In this document: positions 792 through 48,600 of the stretch, piece after piece
Layout: every line of letters begins with the position of its first letter
Position numbering within the stretch: position 1 is the stretch's first letter
Assembly: GCF_002210285.1 (NCBI RefSeq)
Contig: NZ_MWQE01000001.1
Location: 868,001 to 932,000 of the forward strand
DNA length: 64,000 nucleotides
From: Fibrobacter sp. UWR2
Lineage (GTDB): Bacteria > Fibrobacterota > Fibrobacteria > Fibrobacterales > Fibrobacteraceae
Reading direction: 5' to 3'
The notes under the pieces: generated by a model
What the model was told of the DNA's origin: nothing
The model's input: only the letters and a program-made list of their open reading frames with translations
Database searches by the model: none
Position numbers and translations under genes: made by a program

Positions 792-2510
792 ATGGGCTTT
801 AAGGTGCGTTATAACCATGTCGGGTATACTCCGGTTTCGCCGAAGGTGTTCTTGCTGGCGGCAGAACCTGCCTGTGTTCCGGGAAAGGGGTTTGCTCCTG
901 CTTTTGAAGTGGTTTCGCAGTCCGGTTCGGTAGTGTATACGGCGGCGATGTCCGGCCAGAAGGTATGCGACTATACCGATGAATTTATCTGGAAAGGCGA
1001 TTTTTCACCTGTTAGGGAGCCCGGGCGTTACAAGGTCCGTGTGACAGAAGGTGAGAAAGTCCTTTCGGAATCGCATTTATTTGAAGTATCGGAAGGCATT
1101 GCCCCTGAACTATTGCGCCTTACGCTCAAGTCGTTCTATTTCCAGCGCAGTGGCGTAGAATTGCCTGCCGATAAGGCCGGCAAGTGGGCGAGGCCGGCGG
1201 CTCACCTGGACGACTGCATCGAATTCCACCCGAGCATGAATCGCGAGGGCACATGGAATGCGCATGGCGGCTGGTATGATGCCGGTGACTATGGCAAGTA
1301 TATCGTGAATGGCGGCGTCTCGCTTGCTACGCTCCTGCTGGCGGCTGAATTTACGGAAAAGAAGATGGCGGCGCCCGGTATTTGTTTCCCGGCGAACCGC
1401 TCGATGGACTTGCCCCTGTTCCGCAAGAACCTGCTTGACGAAATCCGGTTCGAACTGGAATTTTTCCTGCGTATGCAGGATACGGACGGAGGAGTGTTCT
1501 TCAAGGTTTCTCCAGCTCACTGGGATGGCTTCGTGACTCCGACGCAGTCCGATGAATCACAGAAACGCCAGATCTTGGGGAAGTCGACCACCTCGACATT
1601 GAATTTTGCCGGTGCGCTTGCTCAGGCACACCGCGTGTTTGAAAGTGTAGATTCTGCTTTTGCACAGCAGTGCCTTAGGGCGGCTATCCGGGCGTATGCC
1701 TGGGCGGTTGAAAATCCCGATGTCACCTACCCGCACAATACCGAAGGTAGCGGTGGCTATGGTGACGATCGTTACGATGATGAATTTTTCTGGGCTCGTG
1801 CCATGCTTTTCCGAGAAGTCTGTGACGGGGTGAAGTTTTGCACGGATTGCGAAAGGGGGTCCGACTGCAAGCTATCTCCTTCGTCTGGGAACCTGAGGGA
1901 TTTGCTCCTTCGCGATATGGAAAAGTGCCCGCCATCGCTTGGGCTAGACTGGCGCGATACGCAGAACCTGGGCTGGATTGCCCTCGCATTGCAGTCGCGC
2001 GACCTCGATTTGCAGGTACGTGCCCGCAATACGTTGAAGGTCGTTGCCGACGAAATCGTACGCCTTGCCGGCGAGGATGCCTATGGCCTTGCTCTGCGCC
2101 GGTTTATCTGGGGCTCTAACGGCGATATTGCGAACCATGCGCTCACGCTATTTTTGGTGAATAGCTGGAGCCCTTCTTCTACTTATGTGGATTGCGCGAA
2201 GAGAATGCTCGATTTTATTTTTGGCAAGAACCCTGTGGAACGCTGCTTTGTGTCCGGAGCTGCCTGGAGTTCCCCGAAATTCCTGCATCACAGGATTTGC
2301 CATTCCGACGGTATCGACGAACCCATTCCGGGGCTTGTCGCGGGCGGAATCAATGCCGACCGCCAGGACATGCATCGTTTCCCGCATTATCCGGGCGCGC
2401 AGCCGGGATTCTCGTATACCGACGAGCGAGTATCTTTCGCAAGTAACGAGACCGCAATAAACTGGAACGCCCCTCTTGTGGCTGCACTCTATTTTTGTGT
2501 TTGCGAGTAA
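792..2510 (+). CDS. Glycoside hydrolase family 9 protein (endoglucanase/cellodextrinase type)
   Basis: Inverting beta-1,4-glucanase-type enzyme. The 572 residues hold an N-terminal Ig-like CelD_N domain (about 1-100, beginning with the typical VRYNHVGYTP strand) and an (alpha/alpha)6 catalytic domain (about 105-570). The GH9 catalytic base motif WYDAGDYGKY is at 161-170 (Asp163 and Asp166), and the proton donor is Glu553 in FASNETAINWNAP. Odd features: there is no signal peptide, since the Ig domain starts at residue 3, and no ribosome-binding site before the ATG. In-frame sequence upstream reaches a stop at 771 without another start. The enzyme may therefore act on imported cellodextrins in the cytoplasm. 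GH9 also contains exo-glucosaminidases, so exact substrate specificity is not determined. The gene is monocistronic by position; hrpB converges 6 bases downstream. Confidence 0.88.
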   Translation: MGFKVRYNHVGYTPVSPKVFLLAAEPACVPGKGFAPAFEVVSQSGSVVYTAAMSGQKVCDYTDEFIWKGDFSPVREPGRYKVRVTEGEKVLSESHLFEVSEGIAPELLRLTLKSFYFQRSGVELPADKAGKWARPAAHLDDCIEFHPSMNREGTWNAHGGWYDAGDYGKYIVNGGVSLATLLLAAEFTEKKMAAPGICFPANRSMDLPLFRKNLLDEIRFELEFFLRMQDTDGGVFFKVSPAHWDGFVTPTQSDESQKRQILGKSTTSTLNFAGALAQAHRVFESVDSAFAQQCLRAAIRAYAWAVENPDVTYPHNTEGSGGYGDDRYDDEFFWARAMLFREVCDGVKFCTDCERGSDCKLSPSSGNLRDLLLRDMEKCPPSLGLDWRDTQNLGWIALALQSRDLDLQVRARNTLKVVADEIVRLAGEDAYGLALRRFIWGSNGDIANHALTLFLVNSWSPSSTYVDCAKRMLDFIFGKNPVERCFVSGAAWSSPKFLHHRICHSDGIDEPIPGLVAGGINADRQDMHRFPHYPGAQPGFSYTDERVSFASNETAINWNAPLVAALYFCVCE

Positions 2511-2516
2511 CCCGCT

Positions 2517-5219
2517 CTATTCAACTTTTTCGGGCCACGGGTGCTTGGGGTAGCGCCCGCGCAGTTCCTTGCGCACTTCGGCGTAGGTGTTCTGCCAGAA
2601 CCCGGTCAGGTCCCACGTCTTCTGGATGGTGCGGAAGTTCGGCGCGAGGATATCGTAACGCACCTTCAACTTGCCGTCGGCAATCTTGTGCTCGCCGCGC
2701 AACTGCATAAAATCTTCGATGCGGGCAGAAATCTCGACTAGTACGCCGTCAACGCTCTGTACGGATTTCCCGTCGTCGCTATTTGCTACGGCCTGGTAGC
2801 TGTAACGGGCGCGCTTGCCATTGGGGAGCACGTAGTGGTCGGGGAAGGTCTTGTTCAGCCAGGCGAGCATGGACTTGCCAAAAAAGTCCTCCACGATATT
2901 CCGGTAACGGTCTTCGTTGATGTCGCGGAGCAGGAACTTGCCGTCTGCAAAATCATCGAAGATGATTTGCATATCCTCGTCGTTGAATTCGGGAAGCCCG
3001 TATTCAGGGTAGAGCATTGCGGCAAGGCGCATCTTGGTAAGGAGTGTCTGCATCTGTTCGGTAAGGTAGCGCCCGCTCCAGTTTTCCTTCTCTATCTTTT
3101 CGCGCCATGCATCGACGCTTAACTTCTTCAGTTCTTCGAGAACCTTCGGGGCTGCCTCCTGCGTGAGGATTTCCTTGCGCGAAAGTTCAGTGACAGTGCC
3201 ATCGGTGTTCTTGCTTTCGCGGATTTCTACGCCGATAAACCGTTCCTGCCCGCTGCGCCACAGCAGTTCGTAGCGGGTAGCGGCGTTTTCGCCAGCAAGC
3301 ATTTCTTGCGCGATTGCGGCGTAGAGGTTCACCTTGAGTTCCGATTTCGTGGTGCCGGTACGCAGCATCGAGAGTGCGAGAATCGCATAGGGCGGTTCGG
3401 CGACTTGCAGGCGGATGACATTCTGGTTTGCAAGTTTATATGCGCTCCCGCTCGGGGTGGCGAGCCTGTCCGGGAATGCCTTGAGGAGCTGCTTGCAAAC
3501 GAAAGTGCGAGCGACTTCGTTAGTCATCCCCGCGGAGGCGGGCGGACAGCACTTAGAGCTTTGCTCTTTAGTGCGCATGGCCACCAAGGTGGGGATCTCC
3601 TTTAGCCCATCGCGGTAATCCCGCAACTGCCGGAGGGTAAAGCTCACTTCGCGCGGGACATTGATGTTTTTCGAAAGCGTGTCGGCGGCGAGCGTCAGGA
3701 TGTCGTAGGCGACCTTCGCCTTTTGCAAGAATTCCGTGCCGGAGTGGATCCATGCGAGCGCTGCGAGGAGCAGGTCGGGGAGGTCTTGCGGACCGTTTGC
3801 CGTGGCGAGGAGCAGCGCGAGCGGGATGCTTGAAACCGGAGTGCGGATGGCCTTGAGCCCGAGGGGCGTGATAGCTCCGTCCTGGAGCATCCCGAAACCT
3901 TCGAGAAGTTTTGTCGCCGCAATTTCACGCGTTTCCGGAATCGCTGTCGGCAGTTTAATGTCGCCCTGGAAGGAGTCCGCAGAACGACTGATAGGGTCCA
4001 TGGATTCGTCACACCGTTGCTGCGTGGTCGCACCCACGTCATACCGCAGCCGCGAAGCGGCAAGTGTGTCCATGGCTTCCAACGCCGCCTTCTGCAGCAG
4101 CAGTTCCGACGGCTCTATCTGCAACACTTCCGGAACGATTCCCTGCGGCATGCGCTTTTCGGATTCTTCGCTCCAGAGGCGGATGGCGCAGCCGTTCTGT
4201 GTACGGCCGCTACGTCCGCTGCGCTGGATGGCGTTCTGCATCGAGATGGGCATCGTGCGCAACACGTTCACCTTCTCGCTGTCGTCGTAGAGGCTCACGC
4301 GCTCGATACCGCTGTCGACCACGCCTGTAACGTTCGGAACGGTAATCGAGGTTTCCGCGATGTTCGTGGTGAATATGACCCGCGGGCGTTCGGTGACTTC
4401 AAAGATGCGGTCTTGCGTTTCGCGGTCCTGCCCGCCGTAGAGTTCCAGGAACTCGGCGCAGTTAGCACCCAGCGCTTCGGAGGCGGCGCTGTGGCAGCGG
4501 GCGATTTCGGCCTTGCCAGGCAAGAACACGAGCGTCGTCTGCCAGATGTTGTTGCGGTAGAGCGTCTTTAGCGCCCGCACCACTTCGGCGTCAAGGCCCA
4601 CGCCCGAAACGAGCGAGTTGCCTGTGGCGGGAGTCTGGTTGATAATTTGTACAGGGTACAGCGGGTGGCCGAGCTCAAGGCACTTGACGCCGAGAACCGT
4701 TTCGAGTTCGGAACGGCTCAGCGCCGCCGACATTACCGCAATGCGAGGCATTGTCATCCCCGGCGCCTGTTGCATTGTCATCCCCGGCTTGACCGGGGAT
4801 CTCCCGTTAAAATACGCGAACAGCAAATCCATGTCGGCCTTGCGCTCGTGGTATTCATCGAATACAATCCAGTCGGCATCGCATTTGCCGTGCAAAAGTT
4901 CCTGCAGAAAGTTTCCGTATGTCTGGAACAGGATGCGCGTGCCGGCGCTCTTGCAGCTGTCTTGCCTGAACTGGTAACCGACGGTCTTGCCGCAGGGCTC
5001 GTTGTGGAGTTTTGCCGAGAATTGTGCGAGTGCAAGTGCTGCAATACGGCGGGGCTGCAATACGACAACGCGCCCCTTGCAGTGCTTGCTCAAAAAGTAG
5101 GGAATGAATAGCGACTTGCCCGACCCCGTGGGCGCCTCGATAAGCAGATTACTGGACTGCGCAATCGCAGTCTCCAGTTTGTCTTCTTCTTCCGCGAGGG
5201 CTAAATCACCGTAAGTCAT
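2517..5219 (-). CDS. hrpB: ATP-dependent RNA helicase HrpB
   Basis: DEAH-type superfamily 2 helicase, about 900 residues against roughly 810-830 in typical HrpB. Visible are Walker A APTGSGKS (29-36), motif II DEYH (121-124, a variant of DEAH/DEFH), motif III SAA, motif V TNIAETSITVPNV and motif VI QRSGRSGR. The C-terminal HrpB-specific region ends in an NTYAEVRKELRGRYPKHPWP sequence, which is diagnostic. Two segments not expected in the family, about residues 140-158 and 540-566, coincide with copies of a palindromic DNA repeat inserted in frame (see repeats at 4753-4804 and 3523-3600). The first lies between motifs II and III, the second in the C-terminal half. The substrate RNA is unknown for this family. 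It is probably cotranscribed with the upstream small membrane protein gene. Confidence 0.9.
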   Translation of the reverse strand: MTYGDLALAEEEDKLETAIAQSSNLLIEAPTGSGKSLFIPYFLSKHCKGRVVVLQPRRIAALALAQFSAKLHNEPCGKTVGYQFRQDSCKSAGTRILFQTYGNFLQELLHGKCDADWIVFDEYHERKADMDLLFAYFNGRSPVKPGMTMQQAPGMTMPRIAVMSAALSRSELETVLGVKCLELGHPLYPVQIINQTPATGNSLVSGVGLDAEVVRALKTLYRNNIWQTTLVFLPGKAEIARCHSAASEALGANCAEFLELYGGQDRETQDRIFEVTERPRVIFTTNIAETSITVPNVTGVVDSGIERVSLYDDSEKVNVLRTMPISMQNAIQRSGRSGRTQNGCAIRLWSEESEKRMPQGIVPEVLQIEPSELLLQKAALEAMDTLAASRLRYDVGATTQQRCDESMDPISRSADSFQGDIKLPTAIPETREIAATKLLEGFGMLQDGAITPLGLKAIRTPVSSIPLALLLATANGPQDLPDLLLAALAWIHSGTEFLQKAKVAYDILTLAADTLSKNINVPREVSFTLRQLRDYRDGLKEIPTLVAMRTKEQSSKCCPPASAGMTNEVARTFVCKQLLKAFPDRLATPSGSAYKLANQNVIRLQVAEPPYAILALSMLRTGTTKSELKVNLYAAIAQEMLAGENAATRYELLWRSGQERFIGVEIRESKNTDGTVTELSRKEILTQEAAPKVLEELKKLSVDAWREKIEKENWSGRYLTEQMQTLLTKMRLAAMLYPEYGLPEFNDEDMQIIFDDFADGKFLLRDINEDRYRNIVEDFFGKSMLAWLNKTFPDHYVLPNGKRARYSYQAVANSDDGKSVQSVDGVLVEISARIEDFMQLRGEHKIADGKLKVRYDILAPNFRTIQKTWDLTGFWQNTYAEVRKELRGRYPKHPWPEKVE
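3523..3600 (+). repeat. Palindromic repeat inside hrpB (long form)
   Basis: The 78-base element begins GTCATCCCCGC and ends GTGGGGATCTCC, the same ends as the other copies in the window. Inside lies a second hairpin, GCACTTAGAGC against GCTCTTTAGTGC (about 3548-3573). The length is an exact multiple of three and the hrpB frame passes through without a stop, encoding about 26 residues that include SSKCCPPASAGMT. Confidence 0.75.
4753..4804 (+). repeat. Palindromic repeat inside hrpB (short form plus partial copy)
   Basis: A full 28-base copy (4777-4804) consists of GTCAT, arm CCCCGG, centre CTTGA, arm CCGGGG and ATCTCC. It is preceded by a 24-base partial copy starting GTCATCCCCGG (4753-4776). 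Read in the hrpB frame they encode a run with PGMT twice (VKPGMTM and QAPGMTM), between helicase motifs II and III. Confidence 0.78.
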
Positions 5220-5221
5220 TA

Positions 5222-5316
5222 TATAGAACCGGGGAGTTGCGGGGTGTCCCCGCTAGAAGGGGTGGCGAGCAACAGCGCTAGCGCTGTGCGAGGCAGGGGA
5301 AGGCATTCCCCTACTA
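5222..5316. repeat. Intergenic palindrome-rich segment
   Basis: This 95-base spacer between two minus-strand genes contains a perfect 16-base palindrome, ACAGCGCTAGCGCTGT (about 5272-5287), and a hairpin GGGGAA-GGCA-TTCCCC (about 5298-5313). There is no T-run for a terminator. It may be a dispersed intergenic repeat of another family; no coding potential was seen. Confidence 0.4.
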
Positions 5317-5781
5317 CTACCTCGGGTACTTCAGTTTTTCGCCGGTAGCCACGTCCATGTAAGGCGGCTTGCCTTCGCGGAACTTCTGGTTGATGACCAG
5401 GTTCTCGATACGGCGGCGCAGGCCCTGTTCCGTCTTGCAGAAGAAGTATACGACCTTGTTGGTGCCCGGCACGAGGAACATGGCGAGCTTGTATTTCTGC
5501 TTCACGGCGCGGCGGAAGAACATCATGTCCTCTTTCTTGGGCATGACGATGTTGCTGCCTTCCTTGGTCTCGCAGATCATGTCGGCATCGGCGAGGAGAG
5601 CCTTGGACTTCTGCTTCAGGGCGGCAAAGTTCGGGTCCGTGTTCTTCTTGATGGTTTCAAGATTGAACGCGCCACCGCCTTCCTTGAGCGCCTTGCGCAG
5701 TCCGCGGAATGCGAAAACGGCTAAAACGATAACAACGACGGCAATGAGCCAGGGCCAGTAGTTTGCGAGAAAGTCTAACAT
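5317..5781 (-). CDS. Small single-pass membrane protein of unknown function
   Basis: The protein has 154 residues. The ATG at 5781 is preceded by GAGGTG. An N-terminal hydrophobic helix (about residues 9-27, WPWLIAVVVIVLAVFAF) is followed by a soluble, basic C-terminal domain of about 120 residues with KKEDMMFFRRAVKQKYKLAMFLVPGTNKVVYFFCKTEQGLRRRIENLVINQKFREG. No known domain was recognised. The arrangement suggests an inner-membrane anchor with a cytoplasmic domain. It lies 97 bases upstream of hrpB on the same strand and diverges from an outer-membrane protein gene. Confidence 0.7.
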   Translation of the reverse strand: MLDFLANYWPWLIAVVVIVLAVFAFRGLRKALKEGGGAFNLETIKKNTDPNFAALKQKSKALLADADMICETKEGSNIVMPKKEDMMFFRRAVKQKYKLAMFLVPGTNKVVYFFCKTEQGLRRRIENLVINQKFREGKPPYMDVATGEKLKYPR

Positions 5782-26252: not shown

Positions 26253-27665
26253 TTAGAAGTTGAACACGGTTTCGACACCGAAGCGGAGACCCACGTCGTC
26301 GTCGTTGTCGCCGATAGGAATGTCAACCATACCGAAGGCGGTGATGTCGAGGTTCTCGACCGGAGTGAGGTAGAGACGGCCACCGACATCGATAGTCTTG
26401 GTTTCGTCGTCGGAATCGCCATCGTAGGCATGGGTGTGGAATTCAACCGGGATACCGAACTTCATGAAGCCACCCACCTTGAGAGCGGGTTCGGCGTAGA
26501 TGAAGAAGTATTCGGGGATTTCGCCGGACATCACGTCGTTGCCTTCGCCAGCGATACCTGCGTCGCCATCGTCGATGAAGGCGAAGAAGAATGCGGTCTT
26601 GATCTGGAACATGGCGACGTCGAAGGAAGGTTCAGCCAAGATGGCGTGAGCCGTGGAGGTCCAATCCTCATCGTCGACGACATCTTCGTCGTCTCCGAGG
26701 TAGTCGGCATGGAAGCCGTACACAGCGCGGAAGCTGAAGCCACCGATGGTGAGGCCTGCATCGATACCGGCGTGCAGTTCGTTGTGTTCCTTCTGCTGGT
26801 AGCTCTTGTAGTCGAAGTACGGACGGAGGTGCTGACCGGCGTAGTCGAATTCGTAGGCAACGTGGGCGTTGTAGACCTTGCCGCCAGCTTCTTCACCGGC
26901 TTCTGCATAGCGGTCGTTGGCGCCACGGCCAAAGCCGATGCCGAGTTCGAGACCGGCGAGGTCGACCTGGATACCGCGGATATCATGTTCCCTCATACCG
27001 GCAGCCCAGTAGGTCGGGTCATCGTAGCCGTAGTAGGACTTGAAAGCGCCTTCCACGAACGTCAGGTCACCGAACTTGATGTCGAAGAAGTCGGCCGGCT
27101 TGTACTGCACGAAGGCTCCGTTGTAGCCGACACCCGGATTGTCGACCGGGCCGTCAGCTTCGAGACCTACGTGGGCAGACCACTTCTCGTTGAACTTCAC
27201 GTCGATGTTGAAGTCGAAGGTGGTCCAGTAGGAGTGGTTCACGTCTTCGTCGTTGAGGAGGTCGCCTGTGTAGGCGTCAAATTCGACGTTACCGGAGAAC
27301 TTCACTTCCATGTTGGCAGCGGAAGTTCCTTCGCTCATGCTGGCCTTGAGCATGCTGAATGCGTTGCCGGCAGCGTTGGCGACTTCACCCGGATTGGTGT
27401 TTTCGGCCGGCTTGGAATCATCGGCCTTGGCTTCTTCAGCAGCCTTTTCTTCTTCGGCCTTCTTGGCTTCTTCAGCAGCCTTGGCTTCTTCGGCCTTCTT
27501 GGCTTCTTCAGCCTTCTTGGCCTCTTCGGCAGCCTTCACGGAGTCAGCCGGGGCAGCGACAGTCTTTTCAGTGGGAGCCGCAGCCGGAGCAGCGGCGGGA
27601 GCCTGGGCAAACGCACCAGCGGCGGCGAGGCCGAGCACGATTGCGGAGAGCGTCATCTTTTTCAT
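26253..27665 (-). CDS. Outer-membrane barrel protein with Ala/Glu/Lys coiled-coil segment
   Basis: The 470-residue protein has a signal peptide (MKKMTLSAIVLGLAAAGAFA), an Ala/Pro stretch and a tandem AEEAKKAEE-type repeat (about residues 45-85) predicted to form a charged helix or coiled coil. A C-terminal barrel of about 350 residues follows, with strands such as VKFSGNVEFDAYTG, AHVGLEADG and LRPYFDYKSYQQ and a terminal DDVGLRFGVETVFNF ending in phenylalanine as outer-membrane proteins do. The helix may span the periplasm toward peptidoglycan; this is inference. GGAGAC precedes the ATG. The strong GAA/AAG codon bias hints at high expression. Confidence 0.75.
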   Translation of the reverse strand: MKKMTLSAIVLGLAAAGAFAQAPAAAPAAAPTEKTVAAPADSVKAAEEAKKAEEAKKAEEAKAAEEAKKAEEEKAAEEAKADDSKPAENTNPGEVANAAGNAFSMLKASMSEGTSAANMEVKFSGNVEFDAYTGDLLNDEDVNHSYWTTFDFNIDVKFNEKWSAHVGLEADGPVDNPGVGYNGAFVQYKPADFFDIKFGDLTFVEGAFKSYYGYDDPTYWAAGMREHDIRGIQVDLAGLELGIGFGRGANDRYAEAGEEAGGKVYNAHVAYEFDYAGQHLRPYFDYKSYQQKEHNELHAGIDAGLTIGGFSFRAVYGFHADYLGDDEDVVDDEDWTSTAHAILAEPSFDVAMFQIKTAFFFAFIDDGDAGIAGEGNDVMSGEIPEYFFIYAEPALKVGGFMKFGIPVEFHTHAYDGDSDDETKTIDVGGRLYLTPVENLDITAFGMVDIPIGDNDDDVGLRFGVETVFNF

Positions 27666-37060: not shown

Positions 37061-40000
37061 ATGTTGAAACGGTTGATAAAAAGATTTTACCTAGCCGTAG
37101 CTCTGCTCGGCCTACTTGGCGCAGTATTTGCTGCCGAGGTTGAGCCGTTTGTTTTTGCAAACATTGCCGCCGACCATGATTCCCAGCAGGCTCAGTTCGA
37201 GTATATGCTGAAGTACAAACTGTTCGGTAGGGATTACCTGCAGATGGGGCGTCGCGTAATTATTCCTGACGCATCTGGTTGGAATGGTTCTGCAAATAAC
37301 ATTACTTCCGCTGAACAAATTTCGTTGGGTGGCCCTACATTAGCGGGTGGCTCAATTTCACTTGGTAATGAATGTAAATTGACGACTGGCCCGATTCGTG
37401 CAACATCATTAACAGCTGGTAATGATAACGGGGCTTCTTTGTTCGCTGGAACAATCTGTTTGGAAAATACAAGTGTTACTTCTGAAGTTCAGAGGGGTAT
37501 TGATAGGGCTAATGGTAATGTAACAGATAATTGCCCTGAACTGCCAAACCCGCCTGCCGATTTGTCCATACCGACAATTACCTGGCCAAGTGAGGGGTAT
37601 ATTGACGATATTATTGTAAATGCGAATAATGGCGAGGCTGGTAGCGTCGCGTATATTGATGTGCCTGATGGTGAAGGTACATATGATATTTATATTCACA
37701 AAATTTATTTGAACTATGGTACTGGTAAGAATGGGGCCAAACTTTACATTAGAATGCAGGATGGTGGTCGTTTGACACGAATTTTCGTTGAGGACTTAAA
37801 AATTGGAAACCATTCAACGTTTAATGTGGTCTATAGAACTGATGAAGGCGAAGTAATCCAGACACAGAAACAGTATCGTGGAAATGTGATGTTCTATTCC
37901 AACAATGACATTACGTTTTCAAATACAGACAATGTGCCCATACAAGGTACCTTTATTACCACGGGAAAGATTAGCTTGAATTGTAATTTAGATTTCGCTG
38001 GTCAGTTGCTTGCAAACCAGTTGTATGTTGGAGATGATTTCAAGGGAGAAAACTTCAAGTTTGTTCCCTTCGACCCGCCTATACTCGACATCAAGTTCCC
38101 GGAACTCGGTGAGGACGGAGGCCTCCGGGAGAACGACCAGACCGTTTCGATTCCCATTAGCCTGGATACGAACGCCAATGTTGATGTGTACTTTACGTAC
38201 TGCTTCGACTTGAGGGACGGCGTGGAATTGTCGGACTTCAACTACGGAGTAACTGATTTCCCCGTATGCGGAGTATCTACGCCGGTGAAGGTGATGATTC
38301 CTGAAGGCAGCACGGTTGCGGATAGGAATATCGAAATCAACGTCAAGGTCGATACTCTTACTGAACTGAACGACTGGCTAGTCATCAAGATTGAAATCGA
38401 GTCTGGCGCGGTCCTTCCGGGCAATAAGACCTCTGGCGAACTGAAGGTGAAAATCATCGACGCCGATGCTAAGGTCAAGCCTTCCTTTGATACGACGAAG
38501 GTGTATTCCGAGAGGGAGAACTATACCGGTTTCGTGGATGCCATCCGGGTCGTCAACAAAACGGATTCTACGACGATTCTGCTGGATTCCGCATATAGCG
38601 GGCGTTACTCGCTGGATCCCGTGACCGGCGCGCTAACCTTGCTTACCCCGGTGAACTACGAGGTCACGCAGAAAGACACAATCAAGGTGACATTGCAGAA
38701 TGGGAGTGATGCCCCCATTATGAGGTACTTCCCGATTACTGTTATTGATGTGAACGAGAAGCCGAACGTTAGAGATACCGTATTCACGGTGAACGAGAAT
38801 GCGACTGCAGGCTCGTTTGTGGGTAAGGTGTCTGCTAGCGACCCCGATGTACTCAACCAGGCATTTGGAAAACTGACCTACTCTCTTGCAGATTCTACGG
38901 CAGGTATGAAGCGCAACTTCACGATTGACGGTAGCGGTAATGTCAAGGTGGCTTCTGGTGCGACACTCGATTACGAGACCATGCCTGCCGAGTTCTACGT
39001 GAAGGTTATTGTGAAGGACCCGCAGGGCCTTGCCGATACGTCGGTTATGACCATCAGGTTGAAAGATGTCGATGAAGATCCGAAGATTATTGTTGACGAT
39101 GATGATAATGGTAAGGACGATACCGAGGACGAGGAGAAGTGTGTCTCGGGTTGCACTACGGATAATCGCGGCAGTGGTCCTGACAGTATTCTCACTGTGG
39201 GGGTCAAAGAGAATGTGCCCACGGGAACGGTCGTGTTCGAGTACGTTGTGTCGGACGAAGACCGCGATGAGGTCGGACGCCTTATCCCGGAACTCCGTGA
39301 CAACAATGGTACTGGCGTGGATTCGCTCTTCGCTATCGATGTGAAGCAGGATGCGCAGACTGGCAAATGGAAAGTAGTCGTGTCTGTGAAGGACAGTTCG
39401 AAACTTGACTTCGAGAATGTGAAGCAGAATCACGAGGTGACTGTAGTGGTGAGGGACTCTACGAACCGTGCAGACTCCATTGTGCGAGTCATCCGGATTA
39501 TAGATGTGAACGAAATGCCGACGCTCGCGGAGCAGAAGTTCGAACTCAATGAACACGAGTCGAGCGGTGCTGTCGTGGGCACTATCGAGTCGGGCGATAT
39601 GGACAATGATCCGAAGTTCACTCAGAACGTATTCAAGGCAGTTTCTGGCGATACGGCGTTCTTTGCGGTTTCTGCCGATGGCGTGATTACGGCAAAGAAG
39701 GAATTTGACTACGAGACCGAGCGCACGACATACGAAATCGTGGTTGCCGTGACAGACAAGAACGACCCGACGCTCACTGTTACCGAAACCATGACCATCG
39801 ACATCAAGAATATGCCGGAAGTTCCGCACATTACGGATACCGAATTCGAGATAGAGGAGAATGTGGCAGATTCTACCGAAATCGGAACGATAACCTCGAA
39901 GGATCCCGATGGCGAAAATGACCCGAGAACTTACAATCTCGTGGAAGAAAGCGACTACGTGATTGTGACCGAAGACGGCAGGATTCTGGTAAAGGACTCC

Positions 40001-42430
40001 TCCAAGTTCGACTACGAAACCGTGACGAGCATAAGCATCAAGGTTTCCGTAACGGATTTGGACAACCTTTCTTCGGATACGGTTATTACCATAAAGCTCA
40101 TTGATGTAAATGAGGCTCCGGATGTTCCGGACCAGACCATAACGGTGAAGGAAGATGCCGAGGTAGGTTCTGATGTGGGGCACATCAAGGCGACTGATCC
40201 GGATTCCCTTACGCCGGAATACAGTCACTTGACGTATGAACTTGTGGAAGAGAGCGAACAGTTCGACGTGAAGGAAGACGGTACTGTGGTGCTCAAGAAG
40301 GAACTGGACTACGAGACGGATTCCGTGTTCGTAATCAAGGTGCGCGTGACCGATGGTGAACTTGCGGATACGGCGCTTGTGACCGTGAAGGTCGGTAACG
40401 TCATCGAGAAGTCCGAGGTGGAAATCACCCGCGCCGAGACCCGTGATTCCGTATGGCTGAATCCTGATACCATCTATATCAATACGACTGACCTCTGCAT
40501 TGAATGGAAGGCCGACGGTGTGCTCATGGGGCCCGATTGCGACCTTGAACTCGAAGAGGGTAAAAATATCATCACGAGGGAGTATAGGGATCCGGGCAAG
40601 GATAGTTCCGGCATCGATACGCTTGTCGTATTCGTGAGCACGCAGAGCCCCATCGTGACGGTGACGAAGGCTGTCGACGAGGGTAAGAAACCGAATATAT
40701 TCACGATTGTCGAGGAACAGGATTCCCGTGACAGCGCCTTCTACGTGAACAGCAAGAATAACGATATCCTTGTAACAGTGAAGGACCCTGTCTCTGGTTC
40801 GAAGGAATCGTTTGTCGTGAATGTGGACCTTGAAACGGTGGACATTCCGTCGAAGACGTTTACCAAGACGCTCGAGGGCTTCGTAGATGCGGGCCTTACC
40901 CTGAACGAGAATCCGGCTTCCGGTACGGTTCACACGCCGGTCAACGACGACAAGATTGCGGTCAGCTATACCGAGGTCGTGAATGGTCAGGATCTCACCG
41001 TTACCTACTACACCGACAAGGACGGCCGTATCATCAGGAACGAGGATGGCGTAAAGGTCATGACGGTCACCTACGAGACGAAGGTGGGCGGTGATACCGT
41101 GCGAATCTCCTACCAGGTCGATGCGGTCACGGGAGAACTGGTGAAGACTTCCGGTGGCTATGCGAAGGTCTCTGAATCCTCGGATAAGGAATCCGCCGAA
41201 AACGATGTGGCGTTTACGGTTACCTACGACTATGTCGACAAAACGGGAAACGTGATGACCGTTTCCTATGGCGTCGACAAGAAGGGGAATCTCGTGAAGA
41301 ACGAGGATGGCAACCTTGGTTACGAAGTCAGCTACACCTACACGAACAAGTATGGCAATTCGGCCACGCAGTCCGTGTTCATCGTGCTTGACCAGATTCC
41401 GCCCAAGGTGGAAATCCTCTCTCCGCTGGAAGGTGAAATCCTCTACTCGAACTTTGTGGAGGTGAAGTGGACTGTGGATATCGGCGATGGCCGCGGCGCG
41501 ATTGTACAGGACACCCTCGTTACGCAGGGCCTAGACAAGGGTGGCAATGTCATTGTGCGCTTCTACCGTGACAAGGCGGGCAACGAGGCCAGCGATACGA
41601 TACGCGTCATCATGAAGAACGCGAAGGACGTGGATATAGCGGTCGAGAAGCCGGTGACGGTCGTGACCCGTGACAAGGTGGACGAATACTACGCGAAGAA
41701 CGAGCCCGAGGAGGGCGAGACCTTTGCGGTGAGCATCTACAATTCCAAGGCGGACAAGGAAATCGAGACGATGGTCGGAGGCGAGTTCGACAGCAAGAAG
41801 GGTAGCGGTGACGAACCCTATCCAGGACTCACGGGTCACCTTGGCCCCACGCTCGGAATCGAGACTAAGGTCCCGACTGTGAATGCCGTGGGTGGACTTG
41901 CGACTCTTGACGACCTAGTCAATTCCGATGGCCTTGTGGTGCTCCAGGAGGTCGAGGGCGGCAAGAAGGTCTCTGTCGAGGAATATGTGGAAAAATACTG
42001 CTCCGACGAGTTCGTGGAGAGTGTCGGTAGCGATATCTCGAGCGCAAACCTCTTCAAGACCAGGATGCGGGTGAAGATCTGGATTTACACGAGCCTTGGG
42101 CAGTTTGTGGACTACTATTCGTTCACGCAGGACCTGGATGACCCGAATTATGTGAACGATGCGGGCCTCCTCACGCTCTACTTCGAGATGAAACCCGACC
42201 GCGATGGCAATGTCCGCTCGGAAACGGGCCGCCTGTATGCGACCGGAGCCTATGTCTACAAGACCGAGGTCGAGCTCAAGTCTACGCTGCGCTGCTCGCT
42301 GCCTCCGTTCCATAAGAACTCGAAGGGCGAATTCGTCCCGAAGAAGGGCGACCATGTGAAGGGCTCGGCCAGGACTGTAAAAGAAGACCTGCTGAAGAGT
42401 TTTGGCTATAAACGCCCGAAAATGAAGTAA
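37061..42430 (+). CDS. Giant secreted cadherin-repeat protein 1
   Basis: 1789 residues from ATG 37061 (GAGGG 6 bases upstream; a longer TTG start is unlikely). A signal peptide (FYLAVALLGLLGAVFA) leads to a beta-rich domain (about 25-335) with glycine-rich turns such as LGGPTLAGGSISLGN and GTFITTGKISLN. A Calx-beta-like domain follows (about 337-470). About six cadherin-like repeats (about 475-1120) show VNEN, DPD, LDYE and DVNE calcium-binding motifs. One linker is strongly acidic (DDDDNGKDDTEDEE). The C-terminal 660 residues hold Ig-like segments and a final FlgD-like domain (KIWIYTSLGQFVDYYSF to ATGAYVYKTEV) ending SFGYKRPKMK. It is probably surface exposed, calcium stabilised and adhesive. 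It is a paralogue of the next gene. Confidence 0.88.
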   Translation: MLKRLIKRFYLAVALLGLLGAVFAAEVEPFVFANIAADHDSQQAQFEYMLKYKLFGRDYLQMGRRVIIPDASGWNGSANNITSAEQISLGGPTLAGGSISLGNECKLTTGPIRATSLTAGNDNGASLFAGTICLENTSVTSEVQRGIDRANGNVTDNCPELPNPPADLSIPTITWPSEGYIDDIIVNANNGEAGSVAYIDVPDGEGTYDIYIHKIYLNYGTGKNGAKLYIRMQDGGRLTRIFVEDLKIGNHSTFNVVYRTDEGEVIQTQKQYRGNVMFYSNNDITFSNTDNVPIQGTFITTGKISLNCNLDFAGQLLANQLYVGDDFKGENFKFVPFDPPILDIKFPELGEDGGLRENDQTVSIPISLDTNANVDVYFTYCFDLRDGVELSDFNYGVTDFPVCGVSTPVKVMIPEGSTVADRNIEINVKVDTLTELNDWLVIKIEIESGAVLPGNKTSGELKVKIIDADAKVKPSFDTTKVYSERENYTGFVDAIRVVNKTDSTTILLDSAYSGRYSLDPVTGALTLLTPVNYEVTQKDTIKVTLQNGSDAPIMRYFPITVIDVNEKPNVRDTVFTVNENATAGSFVGKVSASDPDVLNQAFGKLTYSLADSTAGMKRNFTIDGSGNVKVASGATLDYETMPAEFYVKVIVKDPQGLADTSVMTIRLKDVDEDPKIIVDDDDNGKDDTEDEEKCVSGCTTDNRGSGPDSILTVGVKENVPTGTVVFEYVVSDEDRDEVGRLIPELRDNNGTGVDSLFAIDVKQDAQTGKWKVVVSVKDSSKLDFENVKQNHEVTVVVRDSTNRADSIVRVIRIIDVNEMPTLAEQKFELNEHESSGAVVGTIESGDMDNDPKFTQNVFKAVSGDTAFFAVSADGVITAKKEFDYETERTTYEIVVAVTDKNDPTLTVTETMTIDIKNMPEVPHITDTEFEIEENVADSTEIGTITSKDPDGENDPRTYNLVEESDYVIVTEDGRILVKDSSKFDYETVTSISIKVSVTDLDNLSSDTVITIKLIDVNEAPDVPDQTITVKEDAEVGSDVGHIKATDPDSLTPEYSHLTYELVEESEQFDVKEDGTVVLKKELDYETDSVFVIKVRVTDGELADTALVTVKVGNVIEKSEVEITRAETRDSVWLNPDTIYINTTDLCIEWKADGVLMGPDCDLELEEGKNIITREYRDPGKDSSGIDTLVVFVSTQSPIVTVTKAVDEGKKPNIFTIVEEQDSRDSAFYVNSKNNDILVTVKDPVSGSKESFVVNVDLETVDIPSKTFTKTLEGFVDAGLTLNENPASGTVHTPVNDDKIAVSYTEVVNGQDLTVTYYTDKDGRIIRNEDGVKVMTVTYETKVGGDTVRISYQVDAVTGELVKTSGGYAKVSESSDKESAENDVAFTVTYDYVDKTGNVMTVSYGVDKKGNLVKNEDGNLGYEVSYTYTNKYGNSATQSVFIVLDQIPPKVEILSPLEGEILYSNFVEVKWTVDIGDGRGAIVQDTLVTQGLDKGGNVIVRFYRDKAGNEASDTIRVIMKNAKDVDIAVEKPVTVVTRDKVDEYYAKNEPEEGETFAVSIYNSKADKEIETMVGGEFDSKKGSGDEPYPGLTGHLGPTLGIETKVPTVNAVGGLATLDDLVNSDGLVVLQEVEGGKKVSVEEYVEKYCSDEFVESVGSDISSANLFKTRMRVKIWIYTSLGQFVDYYSFTQDLDDPNYVNDAGLLTLYFEMKPDRDGNVRSETGRLYATGAYVYKTEVELKSTLRCSLPPFHKNSKGEFVPKKGDHVKGSARTVKEDLLKSFGYKRPKMK

Positions 42431-42451
42431 ATTTGAGAAAAAAGCGCTTTT

Positions 42452-42476
42452 AAGAGGCCTGTGGGGCCTCTTTTTT
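42452..42476 (+). terminator. Terminator of giant gene 1
   Basis: AAGAGGCC-TGTG-GGGCCTCTTTTTT, 22 bases after the stop codon. It suggests the two giant genes are separately transcribed. Confidence 0.88.
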
Positions 42477-42528
42477 GTTTTTTGGGGAGGGATTTCAGTG
42501 GAGCCTGTTTCGTGTAAACAAAAATTTT

Positions 42529-42561
42529 ACAAAAAGGCGTGACGTGGCTCACATGTTGTGG
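42529..42561 (+). promoter_or_regulatory. Conserved upstream element of giant gene 2 with CRP-like site
   Basis: ACAAAAA, then GTGA-CGTGGC-TCAC (42539-42552), a perfect match to the CRP/FNR-type GTGA-N6-TCAC core, then ATGTTGTGG. Similar in order and wording to 36964-36995 upstream of giant gene 1. About 140 bases before the start codon. Confidence 0.45.
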
Positions 42562-42693
42562 TTTAGGTCGGAAAAATGGGAAAAATGCTCCCGTTTTCCC
42601 CATTGGGGACCTTGGAATGTAATAATATTTTAGTATTTTTAGGCCGGTGTTAAATGGGTTGGAGTCATCCATTTTTCCAATATGGTGGAGAAA

Positions 42694-45600
42694 ATGAAAA
42701 AATTAAAGTGTTTGGCAGTTTTGCTTGTTGGTCTTATACCGACGTTCGCTTTCGCTAAAGCTAGCGTAGCTCCGTTGCAGTTTACGGGTGTCCCCGCAAG
42801 CCAGCAGGAGGCTCGTTGGGATTCCCTGATGAAATACAAGATTTGGGGAACAGACTCCATTCGTTTCCATGAAGAGGATTTTATCTCTGACACGGTCGGC
42901 TACAACGGAACTAGGGGCCCGATGTACTTAATGTACGGCCAGCGCGAGCTTGGCGGCCCGATTCTTGTGGGCGGCAACATGGTGTTCGACAATGGCGAAA
43001 AAGATGTTTTGCTTGCTGGTCCGGTGCGTGTGGAGGGAAATCTCCGGCTTAGCAATCAGGGCGGAAATAAGATGCCGAAAGTGTGGTGCGTAAAGGGGAG
43101 CATTACCGCGCAACACAATAACGGGTCTGAAGCTCAATGGAACAGTTTGATTGGTTCCTTGTATACTGATGAAACGAATGCCGTTTATACAAGTAAGGCA
43201 GGTGATTATTCTTCTTGTCCGACCAAAGTTCCTCCGCTTGAAGATTTGACGGTTCCCTATTTGGCGGACGCCGACTGGCAGGGCTCGGATAACTTCGGAA
43301 TGACGGTTACACATGGGGAAACTAGATATATACATGTTCCTCCTGATTCCGTATATACGAATACATACGGAACATATGATAAGTATTACGAAAATTTTCA
43401 GGTGAGCGGCTCCTTGGGTAAGACCCTTTATATTGTGATGCCTCCCAACGGAAGACTGACGAGAATTTTTGCGAAAAATGGCTTCGATTTTGATAACGCA
43501 GTTAACGACTTTAAAATTCAGGTTGTCTATGTTAAAGAGGGCACGAAATTTGCAAATGGTGAATGGGATTTGACGGATAAAGACGAGTTTAAGTATTTGA
43601 GCAATGCTGATTATGCTGGTAACTTGCTGTTTTACACAAATAAAAAAATTCAGTGGAATTGGTGGGATAATGCGTCTTTCCAGGGTACTTGGATAACGAC
43701 TGATTCGATTCAGATTGGTGGCCATTTCAAGTTGGCTGGTCAAATTATTGCTAAGTCTATTAATTTCCTTGCAAAAATCAAGGGAGACTTCCAGTACATG
43801 CCGTTTGACCCCCCTTGGATTGATATCAATCCAGAAGCGCGTACTTGGGGAACCCTCTACGAAGGAAAATCTGGTAAGCAGGCGCTCAATATTCGCTTGA
43901 ATGAAGCCCCGACGACTGATGTCACTTTCAAGTATTGCTTTATTTTCACAGGCAATCAGGCGAACAACAGGGATACGGACCCGGATTCGTTGCAGGCGTT
44001 CGCCAGCTTGGACGACGTCGTCACATCAGATTTGCCTATTTGTAACGGTGCTAATTCAACCAACTTCAAGACGGTGTCAATCCCCAAGGGCTCTCTCGTT
44101 CCGACAAGTCCGGTTGGGGTGGAAGTCAAGGATGAACTTGTCGAGGAATGGGGCGAAATGTTCACGATTCGCGTGTTCGACATGGTGGGCGCCGTGCTCC
44201 CGAACAAGAGCCGTGAAGGCGAGTTCCTAATCGAAATTGAGGATGACGACAGGGCTCCGCTCAGCAAGGATACCACGTTCGTCGGCATTGAAGACGAAGA
44301 CAACGCTTTTGTCAGGTTCCCGGCCCTTACTGGTAACGGCCAGCCTCTGACAGATTTCTTTGTGAAGATTGAATCGTTGCCGATGCACAACAGCAGTGTC
44401 GCCGGTAAGTTGATTTATGATGGCAACGTCGTTGATGCCGCTACCATTGCTGCGGGCCTCATTATTCCGAGTGCCGATATCGGTAAGCTCGTATATCGCG
44501 GGGAACCGAATGCATATGGAACCGGAGTCGCTTCGTTTACCTTTAGGATTATCAACAAGGATGTCCCTGCTGTTAGTAACAATGTGGTTGCCATCAACTT
44601 GAATGCCGTGAACGACGCCCCGACGGTGAACAACCCGACGGTCAAAGTCAAGGAGAATGTCGCTGGCGAAACTACTCCCAATGCGGTGAGCGGCAAGATT
44701 ACCGTGAACGACGTGGATGATACCCAGTTTACCTATGCGTTCGATACTGGGGATGCGAATTATGCCAAGGTAACTTCCTTGTACACCATCAATTCGTCGA
44801 CGGGCAAGATTTCCGTGAAGAGCGGCGTCAAGCTGAATTACGAATCGGCGGATAGCCTCCTGAAGATCAAGGTGAATGTTACGGACGCCGCCTCTACGAC
44901 TTCCGGTACGGGGAAGATTACGGTCAAGTCTACCGTGACCATCAAGATTACCGACGATAATGACAAGCCCGTCATTAGAGACACGACATTGACGGTTGCT
45001 GAAAATTCGGCTGCTGGTACCGAAGTGGGCAAGGTTACCGCAGAAGACGAAGATATCTGGAAGGTGCTTTCGTTCTCGCTTGCCGATATGCCGGGGAATG
45101 CGAACACGGCTAGCCTGTTTACGATAGATGGAAACGGTGTAATCAAGGTGGCTACGGGCGCCAATCTCGACTACGAGACGAAGAAGGAATACAAACTCTA
45201 CGCCATCGTGACGGATAACGGCGAAAGCAAGGGCTTTTCGAACAAGAAGGATACTGCCGAAGTTACAATCAAGCTTACGGACGCTAATGATCCGCCCATC
45301 ATTGTCGACATCAAGGACGATTACAACGTTGTTGAAAACACCAAGACTGGGGTTGTTTTTGCAAAGTTCAAGGTTGTCGATGTGGATGCCGCCGATGGCA
45401 GCACTACCCTGAGCGCCACTGTAACGGATAAGAACCCGGTTTCGGGCTCCGTTAACGCCGGCCAGCTCTTCAAGGCGACAGTTTCAGCGCACAATGGCGA
45501 TACACTGTATGTCAACCTTCTTGTGAAGGATAGCGCCCTGTTGGACTACGAAGCCCTCTACAAGGCTGATACGGTCAGCTACAATGTGACCGTGTCCATA

Positions 45601-48600
45601 AAGGATGGCGGCAACAGCACCGTTTCTGCAGATACGAAGATCTTTGTGACGGACGAAAACGAAACTCCGGATGCGAAGGACGGCGCGTTTACCGTTGCCG
45701 AAAATGCCCCTGCGGGAACGCTTGTGGGTACAGTTAGCGCTTCTGACCCGGATACATGTAATGCGACTTACAGCAAACTCAAGTATGTACTTGTCGGCTC
45801 TTCTAGCCGCTATGCGGTTGCAAGTGCGACCGGCAAGATTACGGTGAAGCAGGGTGCGGTAATTGACTACGAGACGACCCCGAACCACAAGGACACCATC
45901 AAGGTCAAGGTTACCGACAAGAACGGTAGCGGCCTCACGTCGCGTACTGCTACTATAGTGATTACCATTACCAACACGAACGAAGACCCGGAACTCAATT
46001 GCGTTACGGGCGATACCAAGTGCAACGGCCCGTTCGAAATTGCTGAAAATTCCGCCACGGGAACTGTAATCCATACCTTCGCGATTACGGATGTGGATGC
46101 GAACGATGCTGGTCACTTGACGGTCGATATCGTCGACAAGAACGGCAGCAACGCGAAGACGCTCTTCGACGTGAAGACGAATACCGCAAATACGGAAATG
46201 ATTGTGTTCGTGAAGGACAAGTCTAAGCTTAACTACGAAGCCGTGGATTCCACATATGTGGTATACCTGATTGTGAAGGATGCCGGCAATGCCGCCGATA
46301 CGCTTGTCCGTACCATCAAGGTAATCGATGTGAACGAAACCCCGACCCTTGCGGGCAAGACGGTTTCGTTGGCTGAAAACAGCCCGAAGAACAAGCTTGT
46401 TGCAACCCTTACGGCTACTGACCCGGATACGAAGCATGTGGTGGAATTTGGCCACCTGGATTACTCCGTCATTACGGAGGGTGCTCCGTTCTGGATGGAT
46501 TCAAATAAGGTGAAGGTTCTCGATTCTACAAAGCTTGACTTCGAAACGACTCCGGTCTTTACGTTTGATGTGGAAGTCAAGAACTGCACGAAGAATACCT
46601 CTACGGGCAAGTACACCGATGGCTGCCTCATGGATACCGCTGCCGTGACGGTCAGGCTTTCGAACGTGAACGAAGAACCGGAACTCAAGTGCATTTCTGG
46701 CGATACCAAGTGCAACGGTCCGTTTGAAATTGCTGAAAACTCCGCTACGGGAACTGAAATCCACACCTTCGCGATTAGTGATATTGATGCTGATGATGCT
46801 GGCCAGTTGACGGTCGACCTTGTCGACAAGAATGGCCGCGATGCAAAGACGCTCTTTGACGTGAAGACGAATACCGCTAACACGGAAATGATTGTCTTTG
46901 TGAAGGACAAGTCCAAGCTTGACTACGAAGCGGTGGATGCCCAGTATGTCGTGTACCTGATTGTGAAGGACGCCAACAATGCTGCCGACACGCTTGTCCG
47001 AACCATCAAGGTTATTGACGTGAACGAAACCCCGAGCATCCAGCCGTTTAGCAAGACGATTGACGAAAATCTCCCGAACGGTACCAAGGTGGGTGACCTT
47101 GTTGCTTCTGATCTGGATACCAAGAACGAAGCGTTCCGCAAGCTGACCTACACTATCCTCGGTGCAGACACGGTGCCGTTTAGGCTGGATTCTAATGTCA
47201 TCAAGGTGGCCGATAGTTCGAAGTTGGACTATGAAAAGAAGAAGCAGTTCAAGTTCAAGGTCCAGGTGTCGGATGGCGCTCTCAAGGATACGGCTCTCGT
47301 GACAATCACTCTCAAGGATGTTGACGAAAGACCGAAGATTATCGTTGACGACGATGACGATGGCGACGACGATTCCGAAGACAAGTGCATTGCTCACTGT
47401 GATACGACCCATCGTGGCTCCGGTGACGAACACGGCAAGGATGCCTTGACCGTAGGCGTGAAGGAAAATTCTTCTACCGGTACGGTCGTGATGCAGTACT
47501 GGGTGTATGACGAAGATTCCGAAGATGTCAAGAAACTTGTTCCTACGCTTGACCAAATTGAAGCGACGGTCGGTGGCCTCACTGCAAACGACCTCTTCAC
47601 GATTACCAAAGTGCAAGAAGGTAACAGGTGGAAGATTGTCGTGAAAGTCAAGGATGGCAGCCTTCTCGACTATGAAGCCCTTGGCAAGGTTGACCCCGTT
47701 ACGAACCTGGTTCCGCAGTATACCGTGAATATCATCTTGACCGACCCGGTGGATCCTTCGAATGCCAATTCCAAGGAACTGAAGGACACGATTGTTCGCG
47801 TAATCGAAGTTCTCGATGTGAACGAATCTCCGCTTTTCGACGTGAGACCGTGTGAAATCGCAGAAAACAACCAAGTCGGTGATTCTCTTGGCAGAATCGA
47901 ACACCCGAGCGATATTGACTCGTTGTCTAAACATCTCGATTACTATGATAACCAGTTCAGACTCGTGGGTGGCGATACGGCCCTGTTTGACCTAAGGTAT
48001 GATGAACCTATTGACGGTAGGCCGAATATAACGCTTGTGGCCAAGGTTGTCTTTGATTGCGAAACGGAACCGTACAAGAACAGGTGCGGCGTTGATAGCG
48101 CATTCCATGTGGTAATCGACTACTTTGACAAGCACGACACGACGAACAAGATGAGAAAGGATGTGCCGATTAAGCTTATCGATGTGAACGAAAAGCCGAA
48201 GATCCTCACGGATTCCGTGGAAGTCAAGGAAAACGTGAAGAAGGGGACTGTTGTCGATACGGTCAAGGCGACTGACACCGACTTGTACGATACTGTGCTG
48301 ACCTTTACGCTAGTCGAGGACAGGAGCGGTTGCTTTGATGTCTCTACGAGTGGTGTCATTACGGTCAAGAAGGACAATTGCCCGGACTTGAACTACGAAA
48401 AGAATAAGGAACTCCCGATTAAGGTGAAGGTGACCGACAATGGTACCGACGGCTCTGGGGAAGGAACCTTGTCTGATACAAAGACGATCATCGTGAAGAT
48501 TAAGGACGTGAACGAAGCTCCGGAAATCCCGGATCAGGAATTCACTGTGCCTGAAGATACGAAGCCTGGCAAGAAGGTTGCCGTGGTCGAAGCCTCTGAC

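What the first reader, a model, noticed from the sequence alone, without database searches (positions are those of the whole stretch)
3523..4804. Palindromic DNA repeats living inside the hrpB reading frame
Two copies of a dispersed palindromic element (78 bases at 3523-3600; 52 bases at 4753-4804) are translated as part of the helicase. Both keep the frame without stops. They encode proline-rich peptides (PASAGMT, PGMT) at places where HrpB proteins are not expected to have extra residues, one of them between helicase motifs II and III. This parallels Rickettsia palindromic elements that add peptides to proteins. The element's sequence seems compatible with translation in this frame.
Basis: partly seen in the sequence, partly recalled or inferred. 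Interest (0 to 1): 0.66.

Follow-up and report, generated by a model that had tools for sequence, protein, structure and literature searches.

The report
Repeat DNA translated inside Fibrobacter enzymes
Short palindromic DNA repeats scattered around a rumen bacterium's genome also sit inside working genes such as the helicase hrpB, where they are read as extra floppy protein loops; in related species the same loops hold other, unrelated repeats, so repeat DNA keeps rebuilding the same loops.

Summary
The two elements (3523-3600; 4753-4804, the latter a full unit plus a 24-bp half unit) are copies of a dispersed REP-like palindrome, core GTCATCCCCG-n-CGGGGATC. The genome has 62 structured copies, 14 of them inside genes. 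Both keep the hrpB frame, in a gene under strong purifying selection (dN/dS about 0.08). AlphaFold2 gives pLDDT <50 at three stretches that match the two inserts and a third, overlooked one (about 3957-4076). In 59 distinct Fibrobacter HrpBs the same three loops carry different repeat-encoded peptides of at least five kinds; outgroup loops are short and near constant in length. Loops in four further genes that I aligned (UvrA-like, TopB, RsmG, aminotransferase) behave alike, some with empty sites. The 78-bp variant also lies in three unrelated genes of other species, same frame and orientation. The element fits CGTC-tagged REPs (Di Nocera 2013), which include Rickettsia RPE-4 and RPE-6. Best reading: tolerated, nearly neutral in-frame insertions in surface loops, orientation-filtered (10 of 10 sites antisense), probably because the sense hairpin plus T-tract resembles a terminator. 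The kind is known; new are the lineage, the recurrent multi-family use of the same loops and the orientation rule. Translation, function and mobility are not shown.

The parts
2517..5219 (-). hrpB, DEAH-type ATP-dependent helicase gene hosting the inserts (900 aa)
   Evidence: the ORF listing; Pfam HrpB_C, Helicase_C, DEAD; core dN/dS about 0.08
3523..3600 (+). 78-bp long variant of the palindromic element: GTCATCCCCGC...GGTGGGGATCTCC with an inner hairpin; translated on the minus strand as residues 541-566 (site S1)
   Evidence: two more copies in the own genome (L020, L044) and eight in other Fibrobacter genomes, inner stem kept by double changes
4777..4804 (+). full short element GTCATCCCCGGCTTGACCGGGGATCTCC (8-bp stem, 5-nt loop); translated on the minus strand as R-SPVKPGMT (site S2)
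   Evidence: same form elsewhere in the own genome and the genus
4753..4776 (+). 24-bp half element, tandem partial duplication of the same unit with its flank; translated as MQQAPGMT
   Evidence: relative L127 has only the full unit at this site; tandem half units in genes are 24, 21, 27 and 24 bp, all multiples of 3
   Evidence: four dispersed partial matches in the own genome at E<=0.0013, 79-89% identity

Best explanation
The elements are copies of a CGTC-type REP family that is abundant in Fibrobacter. They were inserted into hrpB in frame and are read as extra residues of the helicase. They persist because they lie in surface-exposed, disordered loops (between motifs II and III; between the RecA2 part and the following helical part; and in a later helical part) that tolerate almost any in-frame sequence. 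Selection removes copies that shift the frame, carry a stop, hit the folded core, or lie in the sense orientation, where the hairpin followed by a T-tract resembles an intrinsic terminator. What remains are antisense copies read mainly as (E/K)IPAxAGMT or xSPxKxGMT, less often as GDPRLRGDD. The same loops are hit again and again, so different species carry peptides of different, unrelated repeat families there. Shown: dispersed element, reading frame, position in variable and low-confidence (probably disordered) loops, recurrence across species and genes, orientation bias. Inferred: that the peptides are made, that they are nearly neutral, the terminator-based orientation filter, and mobilisation by an unknown enzyme or by repeat-templated recombination.
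For: Element count against the reversed control: 73 versus 0; 62 structured copies, 14 in genes. Genus-wide: 33 of 37 Fibrobacter genomes, one of 23 other Fibrobacterota. HrpB inserts hit repeated DNA outside hrpB in 82 of 177 cases, against 2 of 353 for core segments of equal length, and at three or more places in 42 of 177 against 0 of 353. Length changes in Fibrobacter HrpB are concentrated in the three sites, with only 37 gappy columns elsewhere. Core dN/dS is about 0.08. pLDDT is <50 at 142-155, 397-418 and 542-565, and the helicase domains are otherwise well predicted. On a core-gene tree the xGMT kind needs 5, 9 and 8 changes at the three sites. Other genes: UvrA-like linker; TopB, aminotransferase and RsmG, with occupied, differently occupied and empty sites. 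The long variant is in the same frame and orientation in three unrelated genes of other species. Orientation is antisense at 10 of 10 in-gene sites, while intergenic copies follow a gene 3' end with the tag side in 36 of 47 cases.
Against: No protein evidence. In-gene orientation rests on 10 sites in one genome, and sense-oriented in-gene copies do occur in other species (HPREGGDL in UvrA-like L189 and L190). The change counts on the tree could be raised by recombination between species. No target-site duplication or mobilising enzyme was found (no Y1 transposase). The insert families other than the CGTC element were defined by peptide motifs, and the terminator idea was not tested.
Confidence: 0.8

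Rival explanations
1. The loops are merely hypervariable linkers, and repeat sequence arrives there mostly by repeat-templated recombination or gene conversion between dispersed copies (replacement of one loop by another) rather than by insertion of a mobile element. This is a rival on the route of arrival only, so its probability overlaps with the main explanation.
For: The same site holds mixtures and tandems of different families. Flanking DNA is duplicated together with units (L048, L033; hrpB half unit). No transposase of the RAYT type. No obvious target-site duplication.
Against: Empty sites exist (TopB L246, L247, L261; aminotransferase L273, L274, L279), so something was gained in some lineages. 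Most copies are intergenic, at unrelated places.
Confidence: 0.35
2. The inserted peptides have been recruited for a function (binding, regulation or species-specific tuning of HrpB) and are maintained by positive selection.
For: About two thirds of Fibrobacter HrpBs carry recognisable repeat peptides in the MID loop (40 of 59). The genes hit are often nucleic-acid enzymes (HrpB, TopB, UvrA-like, rRNA and tRNA modification), as Di Nocera 2013 noted for other species.
Against: The peptides differ between species, seem to decay (DVSAGMI, DGASAGTT in L096 and L127) and can be nearly absent (S2 of 7 residues in L071 and L074). AlphaFold2 gives them no confident structure.
Confidence: 0.08
3. The hairpins are skipped or removed at the RNA or translation level (bypassing or processing), so that the mature proteins lack the repeat peptides.
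For: The inserts form stable hairpins on the coding strand (z -2.6 and -3.05).
Against: The copies found in genes are in frame and stop-free, and tandem partial copies in genes are multiples of 3 (4 of 4) while intergenic ones are so in 3 of 6. Bypassing would not need this.
Confidence: 0.03
4. Artefact: assembly error, pseudogene or chance palindromes.
For: Most relatives compared are metagenome-assembled genomes.
Against: The pattern recurs in dozens of independent assemblies. The gene is intact with dN/dS about 0.08. Copy number is far above the reversed control.
Confidence: 0.01

Closest known systems
CGTC-tagged REPs, families CGTC-1 and CGTC-2 (Di Nocera et al. 2013, PMC3733652)
   Same: CGTC/TGTC tag, 8-bp stem beginning with AT, loop of 4 or 5 nt, tens of copies, mostly next to gene 3' ends and between convergent or unidirectional genes, some in genes (uvrA, uvrB, RNA helicases), no dedicated transposase.
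   Different: Fibrobacter is not mentioned there. Tail CTTT/CTCC rather than CCA. Singletons and head-to-tail partial tandems rather than head-to-head dimers. One site occupied by several unrelated repeat families across a whole genus.
Rickettsia palindromic elements (RPE-1, RPE-4, RPE-6; Ogata et al. 2000, as reviewed in PMC2229807)
   Same: Palindromic repeats in frame within conserved genes as well as between genes; peptides apparently tolerated; RPE-4 and RPE-6 are CGTC REPs.
   Different: Classical RPEs are 105-146 bp, unlike the 24-28 bp and 78 bp elements here. Free-living gut bacterium of another phylum, not a reduced intracellular genome.
Neisseria dRS3 repeats
   Same: CGTC-1 type element with the same tag and stem logic.
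   Different: Clustered and, to my knowledge, intergenic; not described as protein-coding in what I read.

Membership tests
CGTC-tagged REP (CGTC-1/CGTC-2) | CGTC (or TGTC/CCTC) unpaired tag before the stem | tested here: met
   Base before GTC is T in 31, C in 10 and A in 1 of 42 short copies; in the window it is A for 3523 and T for 4753 and 4777
CGTC-tagged REP (CGTC-1/CGTC-2) | 8-bp stem with AT at positions 1-2 and a loop of 4-5 nt | tested here: met
   Stem 8 in 38 of 42; main loops GAAG/GGAG/GCAG (4 nt) and CTTGA (5 nt). The 78-bp variant departs by its long structured loop
CGTC-tagged REP (CGTC-1/CGTC-2) | Short tail, mostly CCA | tested here: not met
   Tail is CTTT, CTCC or CTTC in 31 of 42. 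Di Nocera gives CCA for most, not all, so I call it CGTC-like rather than a certain member
CGTC-tagged REP (CGTC-1/CGTC-2) | Predominantly head-to-head dimers | tested here: not met
   One possible inverted partner in 42 copies; tandem partial copies are head-to-tail
CGTC-tagged REP (CGTC-1/CGTC-2) | No dedicated transposase | tested here: inconclusive
   No Y1_Tnp match in the own genome, with controls ringing; other transposase types not tested
Rickettsia palindromic element (protein-coding palindrome) | In-frame insertion into conserved genes, absent from orthologues | tested here: met
   HrpB; TopB, aminotransferase and RsmG with empty or short sites
Rickettsia palindromic element (protein-coding palindrome) | Size of classical RPEs (105-146 bp) | tested here: not met
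   Elements are 24-28 bp or 78 bp; no direct sequence comparison with RPEs was run
Rickettsia palindromic element (protein-coding palindrome) | Host protein is translated with the insert | not testable with these tools
   Needs proteomics
GTAG REP/REPIN mobilised by RAYT | GTAG tag and a RAYT (Y1 transposase) gene | tested here: not met
   Tag is T/C-GTC; no Y1_Tnp in the own genome

The most novel reading that the evidence does not exclude
Fibrobacter has an active process that preferentially delivers or exchanges short repeat cassettes of several unrelated families at the same surface loops of many enzymes, amounting to a genus-wide, repeat-driven diversification of protein loops, rather than random insertion followed by purging.
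Probability: 0.15. Interest if true: 0.85.

Novelty: new variant of a known kind. Interest (0 to 1): 0.58.

Why it matters
Protein-coding palindromes are best known from Rickettsia, where the small, intracellular genome invites the view that they are junk tolerated by decaying genes. Here the same thing happens in a free-living gut bacterium with a functioning core gene, and many species can be compared at one site. This makes it possible to test whether repeat DNA is a regular source of new protein loops, how such inserts are tolerated, and why one orientation prevails in genes. It also warns annotators that these peptides are not necessarily spurious.

Tried and rejected
RAYT/Y1 transposase as mobiliser: no match in the own genome. 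Rfam: no family in 2400-5400. Target-site duplication: none obvious from eye comparison of occupied and empty sites; not tested rigorously. First repeat-content run was spoiled by imperfect masking of hrpB and was redone. Many in-ORF hits were rejected as spurious reverse-frame or upstream ORFs (L032, L034, L038, L053, L058, L062); L037 left out as doubtful. A Fibrobacter-specific literature report was sought and not found. Assembly artefact and pseudogene rejected.

Full report
Observation. The gene on the minus strand at 2517-5219 is an intact 900-aa HrpB. The element at 3523-3600 is read as residues 541-566 and the one at 4753-4804 as residues 139-156, without stops. The core GTCATCCCCG occurs 73 times in the genome against 0 for the reversed pattern, and 62 of these have the closing arm. 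The second site is a full unit plus a 24-bp half unit. Such half-plus-full tandems recur (L001, L008, L018, L033, L035, L039). The first site is a 78-bp variant with an inner hairpin, also present at two other places in this genome and in other Fibrobacter genomes. There the inner stem differs by changes on both sides: the inner arms read AGAGC/GCTCT, AGAAC/GTTCT, AACAAC/GTTGTT and AGCACT/AGTGCT (pairing read by eye). This argues for a structured nucleic-acid element. No Rfam family matches.

Insert or native? Fibrobacter HrpBs show three length-variable sites: S2 (after DMDLLFAY), MID (after PSELLLQKAALE) and S1 (after RQLRDYR). In 59 distinct proteins S2 ranges from 6 to 81, MID from 5 to 82 and S1 from 14 to 74 residues. 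HrpBs from outside the genus have 11-13, 5-8 and 18-23 residues by slightly different bounds. Only 37 core columns are gappy. The sites hold peptides of several kinds: xGMT (the present element), EAKQS/HASNEAR, VEGS/PERS, DERRxxRDER, SDQAQAGR, DPISRP, LAASxLR, GVAGPATEAP and GSPTL. Insert DNA matches other, non-hrpB Fibrobacter DNA in 82 of 177 cases against 2 of 353 control segments of equal length. On a tree of the core, the xGMT kind needs 5, 9 and 8 changes at the three sites. This suggests repeated gain or loss, though recombination could raise the counts.

Working gene. The core evolves with median dN/dS about 0.08. AlphaFold2 on a 49-sequence alignment gives mean pLDDT 79. The main segments under 50 (142-155, 397-418, 542-565) coincide with the three sites; two short ones lie elsewhere.

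Other genes. In this genome the element is inside nine genes at ten sites, including an aminotransferase, TopB, a UvrA-like protein, an ABC ATPase, a TrmB-like methyltransferase, TilS-like and RsmG. For the UvrA-like linker, TopB, RsmG and the aminotransferase I aligned about 30 species each. The insertion point is empty or short in some, holds the same element in others, and holds other repeat families in still others. TopB L261 reads QAQYLLED-KVAVFE where the own protein has QAQYVKQETKEDTRSPAKPGMTNDGL-KVAVFE. The 78-bp variant is in frame in three further unrelated genes of other species, always as (E/K)IPTLVAMRTKxQxxKCCPPAxAGMT. On the antisense strand only this frame is free of stops (direct reading).

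Orientation. All ten in-gene sites read the strand opposite to the tag. In unidirectional gene pairs the intergenic copies are 12 sense to 7 antisense (Fisher p 0.001; the gene calls are my own). Intergenic copies have the tag side facing a gene that reads towards it in 36 of 47 cases, often within tens of bases of its end, and many are followed by a run of T. I infer that sense copies would act as terminators inside genes. Exceptions exist in other species (HPREGGDL in UvrA-like proteins). Tandem partial units in genes are 24, 21, 27 and 24 bp, against 20, 22, 39, 21, 52 and 45 bp between genes, as expected if the reading frame is kept by selection.

Distribution. A subset pattern (7-base spacer, one mismatch) is found in 33 of 37 Fibrobacter genomes (own included) and in one of 23 other Fibrobacterota.

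Known context. The element fits the structural definition of CGTC-1/CGTC-2 REPs in tag, stem and loop, but not in tail or dimer habit. Di Nocera et al. report intragenic CGTC REPs, identify RPE-4 and RPE-6 with them, note repair genes as frequent hosts and find no transposase. They do not mention Fibrobacter. For Rickettsia gmk the RPE-bearing enzyme is made and active, with changed substrate affinity (PMC2229807). So the kind is known. The lineage, the genus-wide reuse of the same loops by several repeat families, and the orientation rule are what I did not find reported.

Limits. No protein data; insert families other than the CGTC element rest on peptide motifs; one genome for orientation; most relatives are metagenome assemblies; literature search limited to open-licence papers.

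Noticed in passing
window 3957-4076: A third repeat-derived insert in HrpB (MID), with partial dispersed matches at C13, C2, C7 and C1 of the genome.
   Followed up: partly
window 5222-5325: The gap between hrpB and the next gene holds another palindrome-rich sequence (around agcgctagcgct); two short dispersed matches in the genome, possibly a further small repeat family.
   Followed up: partly
L042 and L054 (also L021, L034, L035, L058): The same outer arms enclose other long inserts: CTATACGATACTTGGCAACTTGTTGCC... in L042 and L054, and CCCTCACCTCCGTGAGGGCAGGCTCCGG-like loops in others, so the element has several composite forms.
   Followed up: no
window 38700-49900: Many divergent direct repeats (families D2-D6, with GATGTGAACGAA...CCG motifs), looking like a large protein made of repeated domains.
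   Followed up: no
window 27367-27543: Tandem repeats of about 18 bp (TTCTTCGGCCTTCTTGGC) that would encode an alanine/glutamate/lysine-rich stretch on the minus strand.
   Followed up: no
L264 (TopB-like), L175 (UvrA-like): Some Fibrobacter linkers have become arrays of many repeat peptides of several families (over 80 residues in TopB).
   Followed up: no
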